From positions 47,993-111,992 of IMG/VR virus record IMGVR_UViG_3300035670_000065: a DNA stretch of 64,000 bases. One strand, 5' to 3'. Under the pieces are notes generated by a model. It had not been told where the DNA came from. It did not search any database and saw only the letters and a program-made list of their open reading frames with translations. Source of the stretch: a virus. Positions 3,521 through 49,725 of the stretch are shown in pieces (positions within the stretch are counted from its first letter, which is position 1; each line of letters begins with the position of its first letter). Both the position numbers and the translations under genes were made by a program.

Positions 3521-3844
3521 TTATTGTTGAGCTCTAAGCGCATCTCGTGCTGTGGCCGCTTGCATATACAGACTATATAAAATTACGTATAGTTCTGTAT
3601 GTGTACAGGTTGTACCTAAAGGTGCTCCTGTTTCTGGATTGAGTAGGTCAATTGATCCATTTTCTGCATCAAAATCTAGTATGCAGGAATCGTTGCCTAA
3701 TCTAGCTAGATTGCTATCAATTAGGGTCACTATTTCCTCTTCGAAAATAGCTACAGGCAATCTACCGTAGTTATTCTTTATAGTTACTGTCTTACATCTT
3801 TGCCACTTAGTACCAGATACTGCAGATTCGTTATAATTTGCCAT
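3521..3844 (-). CDS. Small hypothetical tail-region protein
   Basis: 107 residues, not recognised. It contains a short acidic region (FDAENGSIDLLNPETG) and an Ala-rich C-terminus. It is translated in the tail operon, 3 bp after the collagen-like gene stops. Position suggests an accessory of the fibre proteins or an assembly factor. Confidence 0.65.
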   Translation of the reverse strand: MANYNESAVSGTKWQRCKTVTIKNNYGRLPVAIFEEEIVTLIDSNLARLGNDSCILDFDAENGSIDLLNPETGAPLGTTCTHTELYVILYSLYMQAATARDALRAQQ

Positions 3845-3847
3845 AAT

Positions 3848-5710
3848 TTAACCACATAAATAAATACAACCTATCATCTTAACTTCAGTGGGAGAACTAA
3901 ATACTAAGTTCTCTCGTGCTTTTGCCACTGTGTATCCTCGAACAATATCATCAGACTGTTTCATACCTTTTCCAGGTATTGAGGATGCAGTAATTAAATC
4001 ACCTATTTCAATATTACCGTTTTCCCCACATACATTAACCTGTCCTTCTCCCAAAGCATTTATAGCCACTAAGCTATAGTTATTTTTAATAGTATCATAT
4101 TCCGGAATGGGGGTAGGTGCATCTGTGTAGTCTGACTTTATGATGTTAGTAAATACAGCAGGAGTGTACCCAGTAGCTAGTAACTTAGGTATGCTAGCAA
4201 TAACTCCTACGGTACCTTTCTGATTTGGGGATGTAGTTAGTGTTACGCGACATATAATATTTGAAACACCTTTTTTATACACTACTTCAGAGTCTACTAC
4301 AATATCCCCTGTTTCTACAATATCAGATAATGCTAGTAGGGCATCGTGCGCTCCAGTAAATGGTCCATAGTTAGTACCACCACCCTCAGCATAAAAATCA
4401 AAACCATTAGCAGCACCTATTAGACCACCTGTAGACGTTCCACCGTACCTCGTACCTCTAATAGCATGTGCGCTTGCCCCTGCATTATTGGAGGTACCTA
4501 ATATAGCTACATCATTTCCATTATTATCCCCTTTGATGCCAATGGCTCCCGAGGAGTACCCATACACACCAAAAGAGCTGCCTGTGCCATATACACCGTA
4601 AGATCCTCCTGCCCCATAGAGCCCATAGGAGGAGGCGTAGCCGTAGACCCCATAAGTACCTGTAGCTACGTTAGCATAGCTACCGGATGAACCAGTAAAA
4701 TTACCTGCAGTACTACTAGTATTATATCCAATTACTGGAGCTACTGAACCACTCCAGCCTAGCGCAGCGTATGCTCCAGCAAAGGAGAGACTTTCTACAT
4801 ACATTCCTTTTACGGTTGCCTGTAGATTAGTACCATCCCAACGTAGATAGTTAGTAGAACTTCCTATAGAGAACTTGTACGCTCCGCCACTATACCCTAG
4901 ATAGTATCCCGTTCCAGTAGCATAATCTGTCTGGCCCCCCTTCATGTGTCCAGAAGTACCTACAGTTAGAGCACCTGAAACATTTAAAGCTCCAGTATCT
5001 ACAGTAAGAGCGCTTAAAGCACCTACCTTAAAAGTTGCTAGGTAAGAGGGGCTTACCCAAGTATATGATCCGGAAAGTACAGTTCCATCAGCTATGAATA
5101 GCCATTCACTGCTGGATAGGGCTCCTGAAGGTGGTAAAGTATACCAAGTTGTATACCCTGTAGCATTTCCTGCTGTAGGAGCACCTATAGGTACTGCTGG
5201 TGCGGCGGGTAAAGAACCACCACTTTGTATTTTGTAAGCTTTTACGGCTGTTGCACCTGTAGCTCCAGCGGTCCCTGTAGGGCCTGTGGGCCCTTGAACT
5301 CCTGTAGGACCAGTATTACCAGTCTCGCTGTAAGGTACAAACATAGTACCGAATGAACTGAGTATACCTGTCTGTGCCGCAGTAGCTTTATAGTGAACTA
5401 CAGCACCACTACCCTTCTGAGTAAGATAAGTAGCCGAAGATATAACTGCGGTTGCTACAGCGGTCCCAGTGCTAGTAGATATCTGAGTATACGTTCCCTC
5501 GGACCCAGTAGGGCTATAGTAAAACGTAATCAGTGGTGAAGTCATACCAGTGACTGTAGCCGTAAGTGTAATGTTAGCTGGAGTATATCCACCACCATCA
5601 GCTAGCTTAGTCATAGTACCGGAACTAGATGTTAAGGCTACAGCGCTACTTGCTAACCTGTTAGCCGCTGCGTGCAACTTTAGGTCTCTATCGTTAACAA
5701 TGGTTGCCAT
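3848..5710 (-). CDS. Collagen-like tail fibre/appendage protein
   Basis: 620 residues. A short Gly-X-Y collagen stretch (GPTGVQGPTGPTGTAG) lies around residues 135-155. A run of YGVYGxxS repeats around 350-400 resembles a beta-helical shaft. The C-terminus (GDLITASSIPGKGM) resembles terminal domains of phage and bacterial appendage proteins. Its start codon overlaps the stop of the upstream tail hub gene, which supports co-translation. Probably a side fibre or spike, with receptor specificity unknown. Confidence 0.75.
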   Translation of the reverse strand: MATIVNDRDLKLHAAANRLASSAVALTSSSGTMTKLADGGGYTPANITLTATVTGMTSPLITFYYSPTGSEGTYTQISTSTGTAVATAVISSATYLTQKGSGAVVHYKATAAQTGILSSFGTMFVPYSETGNTGPTGVQGPTGPTGTAGATGATAVKAYKIQSGGSLPAAPAVPIGAPTAGNATGYTTWYTLPPSGALSSSEWLFIADGTVLSGSYTWVSPSYLATFKVGALSALTVDTGALNVSGALTVGTSGHMKGGQTDYATGTGYYLGYSGGAYKFSIGSSTNYLRWDGTNLQATVKGMYVESLSFAGAYAALGWSGSVAPVIGYNTSSTAGNFTGSSGSYANVATGTYGVYGYASSYGLYGAGGSYGVYGTGSSFGVYGYSSGAIGIKGDNNGNDVAILGTSNNAGASAHAIRGTRYGGTSTGGLIGAANGFDFYAEGGGTNYGPFTGAHDALLALSDIVETGDIVVDSEVVYKKGVSNIICRVTLTTSPNQKGTVGVIASIPKLLATGYTPAVFTNIIKSDYTDAPTPIPEYDTIKNNYSLVAINALGEGQVNVCGENGNIEIGDLITASSIPGKGMKQSDDIVRGYTVAKARENLVFSSPTEVKMIGCIYLCG

Positions 5711-7287
5711 TATACAAGTACCTCTACGTCTATTGTGCTATCTAACCAACTAGGTGCTAAACTAATAACTTGCCCTGTAAGTCCATTGGTAAGTCCGAAT
5801 CTAGGATACTTCAAGCTAACTTGTTGACCTAATTTTAAGCCTAGTAACTTAGAAGTACCAGTTAGGGAGTATACGTTGTGCTGCTGCCTATAGTACGTCA
5901 TTATTCTATCAGCTTCTGCAGTAGCATCCGTACCTTTTACTAGCAAAGTATTCTTTTGCTCAGGGTCTATATTTAAGCCATATAGTGCTTTTACGCCTGT
6001 GCCATCCGTTGCAGTTTTTGTTAAGTATTCTGTTGCGTAATCTGTTTTGTGATCCTCAGGAATTGCTGTTAGTAGATCACTTTGCACTGTCCAGTTCTTA
6101 CAGTACCCAATTGTGCATGTGGCACGAACTGGTACACGTTGGGATAAGTTAAAGGATCCTTGAATTATATCATTATCAGTTATTTCTGTAATATCTGAAT
6201 TGACAAACGGTACACCATACTTAAGAAGCTGTAACTTACCTTCCTTAGACATTACCAATTGCGCGCCTACGCTGGCCGCTAGTTCTGAACAGATTGAAAA
6301 GACTGATTCTGACCCAGTAACTTGAACGCCGGTTGGTTGAGTATTAGCCGTTGAAAATGCTAAAAGGTTTGGCAGATCTAAATCTGAGGCTGTAAACCTT
6401 TGGTAAGAGTTGCCGTACTCTTTAACTAATAACGCAATTATTTGTGCAATATTATTAGAGTATGTACTATCCGTAGCACCAGTAGTTAAGTTAATTGACT
6501 TCTGTACTCCTTGAACCGACATTGTAATAGTGCCTGCTGGAGTATATGCCAACTTAAACTTACCACTAGGGGCTGTATAAGTAATACCTGATAGTAGGTC
6601 TCCGGGCCCGTCTTTATCTGTATAAAGTGGAACTCCATTATCTCTAACTTCTATAATACGTTCTGAGTTATCTCTACAGAACATATACTCTAGCTGAGCT
6701 GGATCTACGTATAGAGGTTCTATATTATGAACTTCTCCAAATACTAAAGGTTTAATAGTATCTTGATTAGTTTGTCCGTCTGCCCAGGTTCCATAAGTAC
6801 CTAACTTATCTTCAGTTATAGGGGAATTTAGTTTCTGTAGTTTATCAATAAAACGAATATTTAATAAGCTACGTTTCTTTGAGTCTATATCAGCAATAAT
6901 ACCGCTAAATATTAGTTTGAACTTTGTTTTAAAATCTGCTAAATCTGTGGAGACCCAGAAAGGGTCTCCCAAATATATATTAATGGATTTATTAACCCAT
7001 AGGTACTTTGTATTATCTAACCAATCATCCAATTCTCCATTAGGGTTTAGGATCTCTACATCTCCATAGGACAGCGACGAATCGCTGTCCGATATGGATT
7101 CTGAAAACTTAATCCTATTTCCTAGAACTGGATTAAAACTAACTAGAGAGTCTTCCGTTAGGTAACCAGTGGATGAAAGATACAACGTTTCGCTAGCCCA
7201 TCCGCCACTGTACTTTGAGATAACTACCTCAATAAATAAAGCTTTTATTGCTTTAGGGTCTTCCAACCACGATTGTGAATAAGACAT
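5710..7287 (-). CDS. Tail hub / baseplate protein
   Basis: 525 residues directly after the tape measure, with the tape-measure stop overlapping this start. In siphoviruses this slot holds distal-tail and hub proteins. Segments such as SYGDVEILNPNGELDDW and KLLGLKLGQQVSLKYPRFG look like baseplate beta domains. No enzymatic motif was found. Assignment is mainly positional. Confidence 0.65.
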   Translation of the reverse strand: MSYSQSWLEDPKAIKALFIEVVISKYSGGWASETLYLSSTGYLTEDSLVSFNPVLGNRIKFSESISDSDSSLSYGDVEILNPNGELDDWLDNTKYLWVNKSINIYLGDPFWVSTDLADFKTKFKLIFSGIIADIDSKKRSLLNIRFIDKLQKLNSPITEDKLGTYGTWADGQTNQDTIKPLVFGEVHNIEPLYVDPAQLEYMFCRDNSERIIEVRDNGVPLYTDKDGPGDLLSGITYTAPSGKFKLAYTPAGTITMSVQGVQKSINLTTGATDSTYSNNIAQIIALLVKEYGNSYQRFTASDLDLPNLLAFSTANTQPTGVQVTGSESVFSICSELAASVGAQLVMSKEGKLQLLKYGVPFVNSDITEITDNDIIQGSFNLSQRVPVRATCTIGYCKNWTVQSDLLTAIPEDHKTDYATEYLTKTATDGTGVKALYGLNIDPEQKNTLLVKGTDATAEADRIMTYYRQQHNVYSLTGTSKLLGLKLGQQVSLKYPRFGLTNGLTGQVISLAPSWLDSTIDVEVLV

Positions 7288-10200
7288 TAAACCATCCTAA
7301 CTTTTGATCTATCGGCCCAAACTACCTCTGAAACTGCAGTATCTACAGCCTCTGCGACAGCCTCTGCCATTCTATTAGACGAATCATACGTTGAAGTTAT
7401 TAGGCTTCCAGTATGCTTAATCTGCTCTTCTCTCATTCTCTTAACTTCTTCACGAAGATACTTAAGTTCCTGCAACAGTTCGGTATTGTTAGTAGATAAC
7501 ATTCCCATAGTCTGTCCAGCTGGATAAACTCGTGCAGGTGTCGCGAAGTCGACCAACTCAGGACCCTCTTCACCCACTAGAGACATACCACTAGCTAGAC
7601 CACCTCTGGCGTACTGTCTAAATACTTCACCATTCTGTGAGGCTGAATGGGCAAACACACCCTTAATATTAGATAGACCTACTGCTCCTGTCTGCAACTG
7701 GGTTAACCAATAATCATACCCGGCCTGTTCTGGTGCTCTACCTAGACCCTTATAGTATAGGTCGTTTACTATTTCTTTATAGGCTTCGTTGTTAAACGCC
7801 TTAGTAATAGTAGTAGTATCTAAGGCACCTGAAGACAGCTGACCCATCCAGTAATCCATACCAGTGGATTCACCTTTACGCCCTAAGGTATCTTTATATA
7901 AGCCGCTAACTAGATCGTTATAGATATTGGGCTGAGTGTATGATCCTCCTGCTGCTCCTGATCCAGCAGCTATTGCAGCTCCTAGGGTATTTTTAACAGC
8001 ATCCATTGCAATACCTAATTGAGCTGTTAATTGTGCTGTTGTCTGAGTATTAGTAGCAATGATACCTAGAGCATCTAACTGCAGTTGCTCTACGTCTGCC
8101 TGTGCACTTAGAGAAATTGCCGTACTGTCTAGCATCTGTAGTACACTATTGAAGTCTTGTGTATACTGTGCTGAACTAGCAAATAGACCTCTTGAAGCTT
8201 CTAAGAACTTATCACTAACTTCTGGTAGCTTGTCGATTGCTGCTTGTTGGGCAGTTTTCTCTGCTTCCGTTGATCCTCTTGTAAGGGCTGCAATTACTGT
8301 AGCTTCGTACTGAGACTTAGCTTCGCCGTACTTTTGGGTCGGAGTTAGTGTAGAACTATCACTTAGCAGTAATGACTTCTTGTAGTCTCTTAGAGCTTTT
8401 ACGTTATCTCTTAGAACTTTAACTGATTCAGTGTAGGTATCGTTTAGCTTTTCTTGAATCTCTTTCGCATCTTCTAAAGCGTATATATACTCTAGGATAG
8501 GTTTGAACTGTTCGCTGGTTCCTGACAGTTCTTGCTCTCTGGAAATAGCGTTAGCCTGACTCTCTCTGCCTGTTAAGTTATATATGCGTTGCTCTAGGGT
8601 CAACTTCTGATTGTTTAGTGCGAGCTGTTGTTGAGCTACCAGAGCTTTTCTGAACGTACCTATTAGCTTCTCTGTTTCTGAAGTTAGTTGGCCGATATCC
8701 TCAAAGAACTTGGTAAACGCGGCGGTCTGCTTATCTATATCTACTAAAGCTTTCTGAGCTGCGGTACTAGTTATCTCAAATATTCTATCAGTAATCTCTG
8801 TAACTTTATTATCAGCTGCGCGCTTATTTTGAGCTTTGTATAGAGCTAGTTGAGCAGCCGCATAAGTTGAAGTTGAAGAGGTAACTTGTTCTAGCGTTGC
8901 TCCTACTTCTAGTAACTTCGCTGTGTAGTCCTCTACCTTATCATTAACTTCGGCTTGTTGTCTCTCCCAAGTTGATAGTCCTAGACGGGCTAACTCTCTC
9001 TCAGCTTTCTTTGTATCTTCAGCCAGCTGCTTTAGTATGTCGGCCAGTTTCTTGGCTGAATCTTCTGCGTCTTTTTTGGAGTCTTTTTCTGCGTCCTTAC
9101 GTAGCTGAATATCTCGTACGCCAAAATCTGGCATATCTATATTAAATCCACTACTTAAGCTTGCTATAAGATTTTTCCACTCAGGGCTACTTAATAAGGT
9201 TTTAAATACCGTAGATAGCTTAGTAATTTGCTCTTGTGCAGTTGTAATCATACCTGCCACCGATATATTGGAAGCCAGTTTTACAACGCCCTCACCAATT
9301 ACTACATTCTTCATTAGAGGAGTTACAACGGTATTCATAATGATGGAACCTACTTGACTAGCAAAAGTATTGGCTAATCCAATACTTAAACTATCTGCTA
9401 GATAAGTGCCTAATTCCTTACCTACATTTTTTCCATCCTTAAAGGAATCCATTATGTTATCTTGCATTCCACTTATTGAGATTCCGAAAAGTTCGGCCTT
9501 CTTAGCGCCATCTTCTAGTTTCCACAGGCTTTCATATGCTGCAATATTCGCTGAACTTAAGTCTTCTGTCGCTAGTATGTTAGCTCTTGTGCTAGTAGTT
9601 AGAGCCTCCTGAGCCTGGAACTGATCTAACATTCCTCCAGATACTTCCTGTATCGCCACATTAGTGTCAAACAGTAATTGTGCTCTAGCCTCTTCAGCGG
9701 ATGCTACTGCCTCAAATGCGGGCATTACATCAAGTAGGGAGTTTAGTAGATCTATTCCGGCTTGTCCCGTTGTAGAAAGTGACTCAGATACCGTAGTAAA
9801 TGCGCTCTTAAATTCTGCTTTAGTTTTAGGTACTTGTAATCCAAAGTCCTTTAATTGTTTACCAAGTCCAGGTATTGCGTCACCTAGAGCATTATCCTTA
9901 CCACTAGCTGCTCTAGTATCTTGGAAGGTATTGAAGAGTCTGAATCTTACAGGGTCAAGTTTTTCAGTCTCAGTCAAGAAGTTGTCTGTATAGAACTCCA
10001 TCTTTTCAGTGAAGGATTCTAACCCACCTGCTCCTTTAACTAGAGAATCTTGTAGCTTGATTACTTGATAAACAAAAGCTTCTGCGTCATTTGCACCGGT
10101 TCTAGTAGCGTCGGCGAGTTCTTTTTCAGCATCCGCTAATTCTTTAGCGGCACTCTGAACCTCCTTACTAGAGGACGTTAACATGTTATTTGCTAGTACT

Positions 10201-47149: not shown

Positions 47150-47671
47150 ATGGCAAACATCTTTTTTGCTAGCGATCACCATCTAACTCATACAAACATA
47201 CTCACTTTTAAGCGCTCAGATGGAAGTCCTCTTAGGGATTTCCCTAATATCACCGAACACGATGAGTACATCATTGCTCAACACAATAACCGTGTTCGTG
47301 ATTGCGACAAGACCTACTTTCTAGGTGACGTGGTCATGAGCCACAAGAATCTTCACCTCCTGGGTAGGCTGAATGGAGAGAAGGTTCTAATTAAGGGCAA
47401 CCATGATTGTGCTAAGCTAAGTCAGTACGAGCCTTACTTCAAGGATATTCGTGGCAGCCACCAGTTTAGCGGTATTATCATGACTCATATCCCTATTCAT
47501 CCAGAGAGTCTGGCTAGATGGGGCGTCAATATTCATGGCCACCTACACTACCATCGTGTTCCAGATCAGTACGGTAATCCGGACAAACGATACTTTAATG
47601 TTAGTATGGAATGTCTAGACGACTATACACCGATCAGTCTTGAGGAAATAAAATCTAGACTTGATCTCTGA
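47150..47671 (+). CDS. Metallophosphoesterase (calcineurin-like) 1
   Basis: 173 residues. FFASDHHLTHTNI, YFLGDVV, LIKGNHDC, IIMTHIPIHP and NIHGHLHYH give the full set of metal ligands. Small phage enzymes of this type are phosphodiesterases or phosphatases. Given the surrounding RNA genes, an RNA-end or cyclic-nucleotide substrate is possible but unproven. Own promoter. Confidence 0.88.
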   Translation: MANIFFASDHHLTHTNILTFKRSDGSPLRDFPNITEHDEYIIAQHNNRVRDCDKTYFLGDVVMSHKNLHLLGRLNGEKVLIKGNHDCAKLSQYEPYFKDIRGSHQFSGIIMTHIPIHPESLARWGVNIHGHLHYHRVPDQYGNPDKRYFNVSMECLDDYTPISLEEIKSRLDL

Positions 47672-47689
47672 GTTAAAACAGCGTATAAT
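47661..47689 (+). promoter_or_regulatory. Promoter
   Basis: TTGATC (47661-47666), 17 bp, TATAAT (47684-47689). The -35 box overlaps the end of the phosphoesterase gene. Confidence 0.85.
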
Positions 47690-47713
47690 ATCTTTATTGA
47701 ATGGGAGAACACT

Positions 47714-47896
47714 ATGAACGAAACGACACTAGAAATTGTGAGACTTTTGAATGATGTTGGCCTGTTCCCCGGAGAGACTGTATTAGTAGAGATCAATGAC
47801 CTGGTTCAATCCACGCTTGATGAAGCGTACAGTGATGGATACCTCGAAGCACAAGCTGAGTTTGATGTACCGGAAGAATACGAGTACGACTACTAA
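47714..47896 (+). CDS. Small acidic hypothetical protein
   Basis: 60 residues (MNETTLEIVRLLNDVGLFPG), acidic tail (EEYEYDY). Monocistronic behind its own promoter. Not recognised. Confidence 0.65.
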   Translation: MNETTLEIVRLLNDVGLFPGETVLVEINDLVQSTLDEAYSDGYLEAQAEFDVPEEYEYDY

Positions 47897-47906
47897 AAAT
47901 TCAGAC

Positions 47907-47935
47907 TTGACCCTAAACTGAAATTGCTTTATAAT
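47907..47935 (+). promoter_or_regulatory. Promoter of large non-coding RNA
   Basis: TTGACC (47907-47912) continuing CTAAACTG, 17 bp, TATAAT (47930-47935). Confidence 0.88.
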
Positions 47936-48172
47936 AGTTATATACACTGAGGAAAACGAATAGCGATAATTGACGAATTATCTACTCGGGCGCAAACGGC
48001 GGGTGACGCGTCCTGATATAATCTGATCTCCGCTGCGGACAGTTAGCTACTGACTCCAAAATTGATCCCTAAAGTGTATACATATGGTGGTAGAGACAAC
48101 GAAACTCTCCAACGCTTCTAGGTAAGTGCTTGCAGAACGCTACGGCGTCAATATTCTGCATAAACCTAGTAC

Positions 48173-48277
48173 CCTACTGATGAGCTAGTGAAACTCTAGC
48201 GAAACGGCAGACAATCTAGCGAATAGGTGCGGAGAGGCTTCAATCCAATCCCCTACATAGCGGTCTGTTCGTATAGG
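48173..48277 (+). ncRNA. Hammerhead ribozyme, type I-like
   Basis: Stem I CCTA (48173-48176) then CTGATGAG (48177-48184), stem II GCTAG/CTAGC, GAAA (48201-48204), stem III CGGCAGAC paired with GTCTGTTCG (48263-48271, one bulged T), then TA with predicted cleavage after A48273 and TAGG closing stem I. All core nucleotides are present. Stem III encloses about 50 nt. Confidence 0.65.
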
Positions 48278-49182
48278 TAAAATCAAGAAGTGTGGAACTG
48301 TCAAGCCACTAGCGGAGAAGTCAACGCTCTCCAATATACTGCTAGCGCTAGCTATGACGCAGTTGACCCAAGCTGTAGGGGGACTATAATTCTAAATGAC
48401 CCGTAATAAAGCATTATTGGATATCTACATAGTGCTTACGGAACAATATAGAATCTTGGTAAAACGGGTTACTTTAGACGACCTGGGAACAGAATAAGTC
48501 CACAACTTAGACCGTGTTAAGTATAAAATACGTTTAGTGGTGGTAGTGCGAGGCTATTGTTAAACGGATTGCTAAGATCCGGCCACTTAAATAAATCCAG
48601 CGCGAGTGCAGCGTTCCAACGATAGAAAGCATCAACGGTAATAGTTGGATTATCTGGTACTAAGGTGAGTATGTAAGGGAGCCAGTAGAAGTCTGATGAA
48701 CGAGGGTCGCCTCACCCCCTGCATAAAGGCCGATTGAGAATCGACCACCTAAAAGTCCAAGGACACAAGTGACTATAAATATAGTGTTAGTGCGACATTG
48801 CCCTGTTTAAGCACTTAAATCCTAGAAACTGGCAAAGGGGTATCCGCCCTATGTATAACTGGATAGGCCGTGCCTACAAGCCGAATGTAACTGGAGACTG
48901 CCTAGGCCACCCGTGCCTCGATCGCAAACGGTAGGGATACAGGCCAACCCCGGAGTGAAGAGTTTTCCACTAACTTGGTTTCTTCTTCAATCTACCTCCG
49001 CCTCAACGGTAAATCAGCTGTAGATAGCTCGTAAATCCGTATGAAAGATATTGTTAGCGGTGTTTCCTCGATTCTTCCGTAAAAGTAACGAAGTGTAGCC
49101 TGACGCTGGCTATGAGTCCCGTAAAGACAGTACGTTGTGATATGAGCCTGACCAAATCACAGAAATCTCGTGGTTAGGACTC

Positions 49183-49212
49183 AAAGCCTCCTGTGTAAGG
49201 AGGCTTTGTTTT
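49183..49212 (+). terminator. Terminator of large non-coding RNA
   Basis: AAAGCCTCCT-gtgt-AAGGAGGCTTT followed by GTTTT. Confidence 0.88.
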
Positions 49213-49304
49213 CTGTAGGTTCTTGTAGGTGGACATAGGTCGTTGAGATACACGACTGAGAATGTCGAATCCTTTAGAATCTACAGAAAACAAAAGGAGA
49301 GTAT

Positions 49305-49538
49305 ATGATCCGAGAATTTCAGCAAACATTAGAATCACAACTAAAGACATTTGACCCTAGGGATGTAACGGATTTAGCACATTTCAAGTCCCTACGTTTC
49401 GACGGTAAGCAAGGCTGCCGTCGTTACATCGTTGAGCATCCGTTTCCGGATGTAATGTCGATGATGCTGCATAAGATTGCTGTAGCTTATCTAAAAGATA
49501 GTAAACAATATACTGCGTCAGAACTAGCGAGGTACTAA
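49305..49538 (+). CDS. Small hypothetical protein
   Basis: 77 residues (MIREFQQTLESQLKTFDPRD) behind AAGGAGAGTAT. Not recognised. Starts an operon with the next three genes. Confidence 0.65.
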   Translation: MIREFQQTLESQLKTFDPRDVTDLAHFKSLRFDGKQGCRRYIVEHPFPDVMSMMLHKIAVAYLKDSKQYTASELARY

Positions 49539-49539
49539 A

Positions 49540-49725
49540 ATGAACCTAATAAACTGCGAAAACTGTGGAGTTGTTCTAAATAAGAAAGCGGTACACTTTG
49601 CACACGATATATGGAATGAAAACGGCGAATTAGACGAGGACTTTGGAACATATAGTTTCAAAGAGGAAATGATGGTTGCCTACGTCAGATGCCCTGTCTG
49701 TAACGAAAAAGTATTGGACGAATAA
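49540..49725 (+). CDS. Small zinc-ribbon protein
   Basis: 61 residues. CENCGVVLNKK and CPVCNEKVLDE form a Cys4 zinc site. Coupled to both neighbours (1-bp gaps or less). Function unknown. Confidence 0.65.
   Translation: MNLINCENCGVVLNKKAVHFAHDIWNENGELDEDFGTYSFKEEMMVAYVRCPVCNEKVLDE

What the first reader, a model, noticed from the sequence alone, without database searches (positions are those of the whole stretch)
48173..48277. Hammerhead ribozyme inside the large RNA
CTGATGAG, stem II GCTAG/CTAGC, GAAA, stem III CGGCAGAC with its partner, and the GTA cleavage triplet are all present in correct order with a closing stem I of 4 bp. Self-cleavage after A48273 would split the large RNA into about 330 and 940 nt.
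Basis: seen in the sequence. Interest (0 to 1): 0.8.

Follow-up and report, generated by a model that had tools for sequence, protein, structure and literature searches.

The report
Hammerhead ribozyme inside large phage RNA
A long non-coding RNA of a tailed phage carries, in its middle, what looks like a genuine self-cutting hammerhead ribozyme, conserved with compensating changes in one related phage, so this large RNA may mature into two pieces.

Summary
Window 48173-48277 contains every element of a hammerhead: CUGAUGA, 5-bp stem II, GAA, 9-bp stem III (one bulged U), the GUA triplet and 4-bp stem I. A full structural descriptor hits the 64-kb window only here; random sequence gives 0.0025 hits per 64 kb. 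The motif lies in an ORF-poor ~1.27-kb transcription unit (promoter TTGACC-17-TATAAT at 47907-47935, terminator 49182-49208) inside a tRNA array.

One relative exists (IMG/VR contig 3300035670_000137, locus L002; same gene order, neighbour proteins 51-81% identical). It keeps all core nucleotides while stem II changes sequence and still pairs. An unconstrained two-sequence fold returns exactly the hammerhead, and L002 alone folds into it. L002's only departure, a U10.1-U11.1 mismatch, is a natural variant noted as tolerated in the literature. In the window sequence alone, a competing fold is 2.0-2.7 kcal/mol lower.

Most likely: a type I hammerhead that cuts after A48273, giving ~332- and ~939-nt pieces, possibly held together by an enclosing helix (48109-48117/48288-48295). 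No cleavage has been shown. The host RNA matches no Rfam family, GOLLD and ROOL included. I found only two members.

The parts
47907..47935 (+). sigma-70-type promoter TTGACC-17-TATAAT of the large RNA; start of transcription near 47942
   Evidence: 11 of 12 consensus; same arrangement TTGATT-17-TATAAT seen in L002 upstream of the homologous RNA
47942..49212 (+). large structured non-coding RNA, about 1.27 kb, homologous to L002 about 6640-8005
   Evidence: no ORF of 60 aa or more inside; blocks of 72-86% identity with L002 and same synteny; 32 predicted pairs with changes on both sides in the two-sequence fold; no Rfam match
48109..48117 (+). 5' strand CCAACGCUU of a predicted helix enclosing the hammerhead
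   Evidence: RNAalifold of window and L002; sequence invariant in both, so no covariation support; -6.1 kcal/mol duplex
48131..48160 (+). conserved hairpin UGCAGAA...UUCUGCA just upstream of the hammerhead
48173..48277 (+). type I hammerhead ribozyme; predicted cleavage between A48273 and U48274
48177..48183 (+). core CUGAUGA
   Evidence: invariant in L002
48184..48200 (+). stem-loop II GCUAG-UGAAACU-CUAGC; in L002 CUGAG-GUGGUAA-CUCAG after a U-U mismatch
   Evidence: two base pairs changed on both sides with pairing kept (read); shuffled segments give a 5-bp helix in 3%
48201..48203 (+). core GAA (G12 A13 A14)
   Evidence: invariant in L002
48204..48272 (+). stem III ACGGCAGAC/GUCUG-U-UCGU with a 50-nt capping domain (48213-48262)
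   Evidence: G-U in window, G-C in L002; AAUCUAGCGAAUAG and CCCUACAUAGCG of the cap invariant
48273..48273 (+). H17 (A) of the GUA cleavage triplet
   Evidence: invariant in L002
48283..48285 (+). candidate partner (UCA) of loop II UGA 48189-48191 in a loop II / stem I-tail pseudoknot; L002 has ACCA/UGGU
   Evidence: three to four pairs only, weak
48288..48295 (+). 3' strand AAGUGUGG of the predicted enclosing helix
49182..49213 (+). intrinsic terminator CAAAGCCTCCTGTGTAAGGAGGCTTTG-TTTTC ending the large RNA

Best explanation
A tailed phage (T5-like by its p143 tail match) transcribes a ~1.27-kb structured non-coding RNA from its own promoter in a tRNA array. About a quarter of the way from its 5' end the RNA folds a type I hammerhead (stem I open, stems II and III closed). 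It cuts itself between A48273 and U48274, leaving a ~332-nt 5' piece with a 2',3'-cyclic phosphate and a ~939-nt 3' piece with a 5'-OH. A predicted helix around the ribozyme may keep the pieces together, so the likely role is maturation of the large RNA into a nicked, two-piece RNA. Shown here: the motif, its rarity, its conservation with covariation in stem II, promoter and terminator matches. Inferred: catalysis (from the hammerhead family), two-piece maturation and its purpose.
For: All core positions present; descriptor expected 0.0025 times per 64 kb. Homologous RNA in L002 at the same locus keeps every core nucleotide while stem II changes from GCUAG/CUAGC to CUGAG/CUCAG. RNAalifold without constraints gives stems I, II and III; L002's own minimum-energy fold is the hammerhead. 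L002's U10.1-U11.1 mismatch is the variant reported in natural hammerheads and said to support more cleavage than any other mispair at that position (PMC3088659). Of 18 consensus hammerheads tested there, 14 cleaved in vitro. Predicted promoter and terminator delimit a 1.27-kb RNA with no ORF of 60 aa. Enclosing helix predicted.
Against: No cleavage data. In the window sequence the hammerhead lies 2.0-2.7 kcal/mol above a competing fold and stem I has pairing probability under 0.1. Stem I is only 4 bp (5 in L002) and invariant, so it has no covariation support. Only two sequences exist; the covariation count on them alone is not significant against shuffles (111 of 500). Rfam's hammerhead models do not reach threshold (Hammerhead_3 16.2 bits against 48.5; Hammerhead_1 none); the long stem III cap is one possible reason, not tested. 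The whole-RNA fold keeps stem III but not stems I and II. The enclosing helix is invariant, hence untested by covariation.
Confidence: 0.7

Rival explanations
1. A hammerhead-shaped three-way junction kept as a structural element of the large RNA, with little or no cleavage in the cell, or with cleavage and re-ligation in balance so that the RNA stays whole.
For: Window sequence prefers another fold; enclosing helix would favour re-ligation; L002 has a mismatch at 10.1-11.1; 4 of 18 consensus hammerheads were inactive in vitro in PMC3088659.
Against: Positions needed specifically for catalysis (G5, G8, G12, H17 and the rest of CUGAUGA/GAA) are identical in both phages while stem II drifts; a plain junction would not need them.
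Confidence: 0.18
2. The hammerhead serves gene expression or transcript turnover (release of an upstream or read-through transcript, mRNA end formation) and the surrounding RNA is incidental, as proposed for hammerheads in prophage operons.
For: Known bacterial hammerheads sit between phage genes and may process polycistronic RNAs (PMC3088659); theta ribozymes are proposed to process tRNA 3' trailers in phages (PMC10879173); the unit lies in a tRNA array.
Against: Predicted own promoter and terminator, no ORF of 60 aa within, hammerhead roughly 330 nt from one end and 940 from the other, and conserved structure on both sides of it point to the large RNA itself as the substrate.
Confidence: 0.1
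3. Chance match of sequence letters.
For: The loose pattern CTGATGA...GAAA is expected about once per window.
Against: Full descriptor expected 0.0025 times and independently retained with covarying stem II in L002.
Confidence: 0.02

Closest known systems
Hammerhead ribozyme, type I (Rfam RF00163 Hammerhead_1; related RF00008 Hammerhead_3)
   Same: Core CUGAUGA/GAA/A15.1-U16.1/NUH, three stems in order, stem I open; U10.1-U11.1 variant in L002 also known from natural examples (PMC3088659).
   Different: Stem III is capped by a 50-nt partly invariant branched domain; stem I is very short; whole motif is predicted to be enclosed by a helix of a large RNA; Rfam models do not reach threshold.
GOLLD (RF02032) and ROOL (RF03087) RNAs
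   Same: Large, ornate, non-coding phage RNAs encoded near tRNA islands (PMC12286853).
   Different: No match of either model to either record (the ROOL search rang in no control genome, so its silence is weak); nothing about ribozymes in GOLLD or ROOL turned up in the searches made here.
Hammerheads between genes of prophages and phages (e.g. PaP3, Bcep176, PMC3088659)
   Same: Hammerhead in a phage intergenic region.
   Different: Those are described in or between gene transcripts; this one is inside a conserved large non-coding RNA.
Permuted two-piece tmRNA
   Same: A phage RNA made as one precursor and matured into two associated pieces; this phage also encodes a tmRNA of permuted type (59868-60170).
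   Different: tmRNA pieces are made by cellular nucleases, not by an internal ribozyme (own knowledge); no sequence relation.
Theta ribozymes of gut phages (HDV-like, PMC10879173)
   Same: Self-cleaving ribozyme associated with phage tRNA genes.
   Different: Different ribozyme class, proposed to act on tRNA trailers.

Membership tests
Hammerhead ribozyme (type I) | Conserved core CUGANGA ... GAA ... with A15.1-U16.1 | tested here: met
   identical in L002
Hammerhead ribozyme (type I) | NUH cleavage triplet at the stem III / stem I junction | tested here: met
   GUA at 48271-48273, same in L002
Hammerhead ribozyme (type I) | Three helices in the right order with stem I open | tested here: met
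   RNAalifold and L002 MFE; stem II covaries; but not the MFE of the window sequence alone
Hammerhead ribozyme (type I) | G10.1-C11.1 pair at base of stem II | tested here: inconclusive
   met in window; U-U in L002, a tolerated natural variant
Hammerhead ribozyme (type I) | Tertiary contact between loop II and stem I region | tested here: inconclusive
   weak candidate pseudoknot UGA/UCA (window), UGGU/ACCA (L002)
Hammerhead ribozyme (type I) | Score above Rfam gathering threshold | tested here: not met
   Hammerhead_3 16.2 bits vs 48.5; RF00163 no match. This is a detection criterion, not a mechanistic one; the long stem III cap is a likely but untested reason
Hammerhead ribozyme (type I) | Site-specific Mg-dependent self-cleavage | not testable with these tools
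   needs in vitro transcription
GOLLD RNA | Match to RF02032 covariance model | tested here: not met
ROOL RNA | Match to RF03087 covariance model | tested here: not met
   the search rang in no control genome either

The most novel reading that the evidence does not exclude
A new class of giant phage RNA that matures by internal self-cleavage with its own hammerhead into a stable two-piece RNA, perhaps a nicked particle handled by the phage's Ro60/TROVE protein encoded 3.4 kb downstream of it (also present near the RNA in the related phage).
Probability: 0.3. Interest if true: 0.8.

Novelty: new variant of a known kind. Interest (0 to 1): 0.6.

Why it matters
Large ornate RNAs of phages have no known function, and most bacterial hammerheads have no known purpose. 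A hammerhead conserved inside such an RNA ties the two questions together and gives a simple assay: does the RNA cut itself, and do the two pieces stay together in infected cells? I found no paper that describes this combination among those searchable here, which does not exclude one.

Tried and rejected
Rfam at gathering threshold and at E up to 10 for the large RNA in both phages: only tRNAs and tmRNA in the window and chance-level hits in the RNA. GOLLD and ROOL models on both whole records: nothing. More members: a 20-mer, a 22-mer, a 21-mer, one gapped pattern and two protein queries against IMG/VR returned only the same contig for the RNA; 24 further loci with the 173-aa neighbour protein lack the RNA within the stretch fetched; one neighbour protein query found nothing. 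Phage records by blastn: only promoter-sized or chance matches. GTDB genomes: no exact match for either pattern. A second CTGATGA at 48693 lacks a GAA partner and is absent from L002, so the idea of two ribozymes making a circle is not supported; no RtcB or RNA_ligase match in the record, which is only 112 kb and may be incomplete. Cofolding of the two halves gave mostly different inter-strand pairs at this length and is not relied on; it did show a competing pairing of 48172-48179 with about 48929-48937, recorded as an idea only.

Full report
Observation. I read 47600-49600 and checked each element by coordinate. Stem I is CCTA 48173-48176 with TAGG 48274-48277; the core CTGATGA is 48177-48183; stem II is GCTAG 48184-48188 with CTAGC 48196-48200; GAA is 48201-48203; stem III is ACGGCAGAC 48204-48212 with GTCTGTTCGT 48263-48272 (A15.1-U16.1, C-G, G-C, G-U, a bulged U, then five pairs); H17 is A48273.

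Chance. The short pattern CTGATGA-gap-GAAA is not rare (expected 1.12 per window). A descriptor with all three stems and the NUH triplet hits only this place in the window and 1 time in 400 random 64-kb sequences of the same dinucleotide composition (0.0025 per window).

Host RNA. The motif lies between the ORFs ending at 47896 and starting at 49305. There is no ORF of 60 aa inside that stretch on either strand. A near-consensus promoter (TTGACC-17-TATAAT, 47907-47935) and an intrinsic terminator (49182-49208) frame it, giving an RNA of about 1.27 kb, cut by the ribozyme into about 332 and 939 nt. Transcription is predicted, not measured. The record is a 112-kb virus contig; the window has about 20 tRNA genes and a permuted-type tmRNA, a prohead protease/capsid, a terminase and a T5-type tail completion protein, a TROVE/Ro60 protein and a HAD domain of RNA-repair 'Swiss army knife' type.

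A relative. The neighbour protein 47150-47671 led to IMG/VR contig 3300035670_000137 (L002, 81% identical protein). There the same gene order encloses a homologous RNA (L002 about 6640-8005) with blocks of 72-86% identity. The other three neighbours compared are 51-76% identical. The promoter architecture is shared (TTGATT-17-TATAAT, read).

The ribozyme in L002. L002 has ACCUA-CUGAUGA-U-CUGAG-GUGGUAA-CUCAG-U-GAA-ACGG-CAGAC ... GUCUG-U-CCGU-A-UAGGU. Every core nucleotide is unchanged. Stem II differs: two pairs changed on both sides and remain paired (A-U to G-C, G-C to A-U), one new pair is added at the loop end, and the basal G10.1-C11.1 is replaced by U-U. Stem III's G-U is G-C. Shuffled versions of the L002 stem II segment form a helix of 5 bp in 3% of cases. 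RNAalifold on the two sequences, given no constraint, returns stems I, II and III, and L002 folds into the hammerhead on its own. The U10.1-U11.1 mismatch is precisely the exception that Perreault et al. note in natural hammerheads and describe as the best tolerated mispair at that position (PMC3088659, section 8).

Limits of that evidence. With two sequences the covariation count alone is within shuffles (111 of 500 reach it); the slid controls are far worse (17-40% of cells paired against 100%), but that structure was derived from these sequences, so it tends to win against the slid versions. In the window sequence the hammerhead lies 2.0 kcal/mol (112 nt) to 2.7 kcal/mol (201 nt) above the best fold. 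Rfam's hammerhead models do not reach threshold; the 50-nt cap on stem III is one possible reason, but I could not test a copy without it. A model built from the two sequences finds only these two places in both records, and none in the 24 other phage loci, apart from one chance-level match (E 2) in the window.

Surroundings of the ribozyme. The two-sequence fold of the whole RNA places the hammerhead, together with the hairpin 48131-48160, inside a helix formed by CCAACGCUU 48109-48117 and AAGUGUGG 48288-48295. That helix is invariant, so covariation cannot test it. If real, it would hold the two cleavage products together. In the whole-RNA fold RNAalifold did not pick stems I and II of the hammerhead, although it kept stem III; the alignment misplaces a 2-nt gap in stem II, which may contribute. 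A loop II / stem I-tail pseudoknot, a common way of stabilising natural hammerheads (PMC3088659), is possible in both sequences (UGA/UCA and UGGU/ACCA) but too short to be convincing. L002 carries a 115-nt insertion folding as a three-way element (z -2.3) immediately 5' of stem I.

Mechanism. The best-supported reading is a type I hammerhead that cuts the large RNA after A48273, giving a 2',3'-cyclic phosphate and a 5'-OH (established chemistry of the family). Because the site lies inside a structured RNA, within a predicted closed helix and not next to a gene, I think maturation of the large RNA into two associated pieces is the likeliest role. Circularisation is unlikely: there is no second ribozyme and no RtcB or RNA ligase match in the record. 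A purely structural, uncut junction is the main rival.

Known relatives. By anatomy it is a hammerhead; by membership it meets the core and helix criteria I could test, two features are inconclusive, the Rfam score is not met, and catalysis is not testable here. The host RNA sits in a setting like that of GOLLD and ROOL (large phage RNAs near tRNAs, PMC12286853) but matches neither model. Paper searches found no hammerhead inside such an RNA; these cover open-access full texts only.

Verdict. Observation confirmed, interpretation supported. The ribozyme is a new member of a very old family; its place inside an undescribed large phage RNA is the new part. The family rests on two metagenomic contigs, which limits certainty.

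Noticed in passing
window 49205-49294; L002 7998-8047: A 19-22 nt inverted repeat (95% complementary) starts inside the 3' arm of the large RNA's terminator and ends just before the next gene's ribosome site; present in both phages with different loop length (52 and 6 nt) and partly different arms, so possibly an alternative to the terminator or a processing hairpin.
   Followed up: partly
window 59868-60170; L003, L005, L006, L008, L012, L018: tmRNA of permuted (two-piece) type in this phage (tag ANDERYSLAA) and in several related contigs; in L012 the match spans 781 nt (3625-4405), suggesting an insertion. Two-piece tmRNAs are known from aquatic phages (PMC9004378).
   Followed up: partly
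window 52608-54173; L031 10001-11551: Ro60/TROVE protein encoded near the large RNA in both phages (76% identical); a candidate RNA-binding partner.
   Followed up: no
L002 6984-7099: 115-nt insertion relative to the window directly 5' of the hammerhead, folding as a 10-bp stem with two arms, with a T-arm-like GGTTCAAATCC.
   Followed up: partly
window 48172-48179 and about 48929-48937: The stem I strand and first core bases (CCCTACTG) can pair with a partly conserved CGGTAGGG 0.75 kb downstream in the same RNA; seen in the cofold; might compete with the ribozyme, or be chance.
   Followed up: no
window 61030-61494: Protein with HAD domain of 'Swiss Army Knife' RNA repair type (PF18143, E 3e-25).
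   Followed up: no
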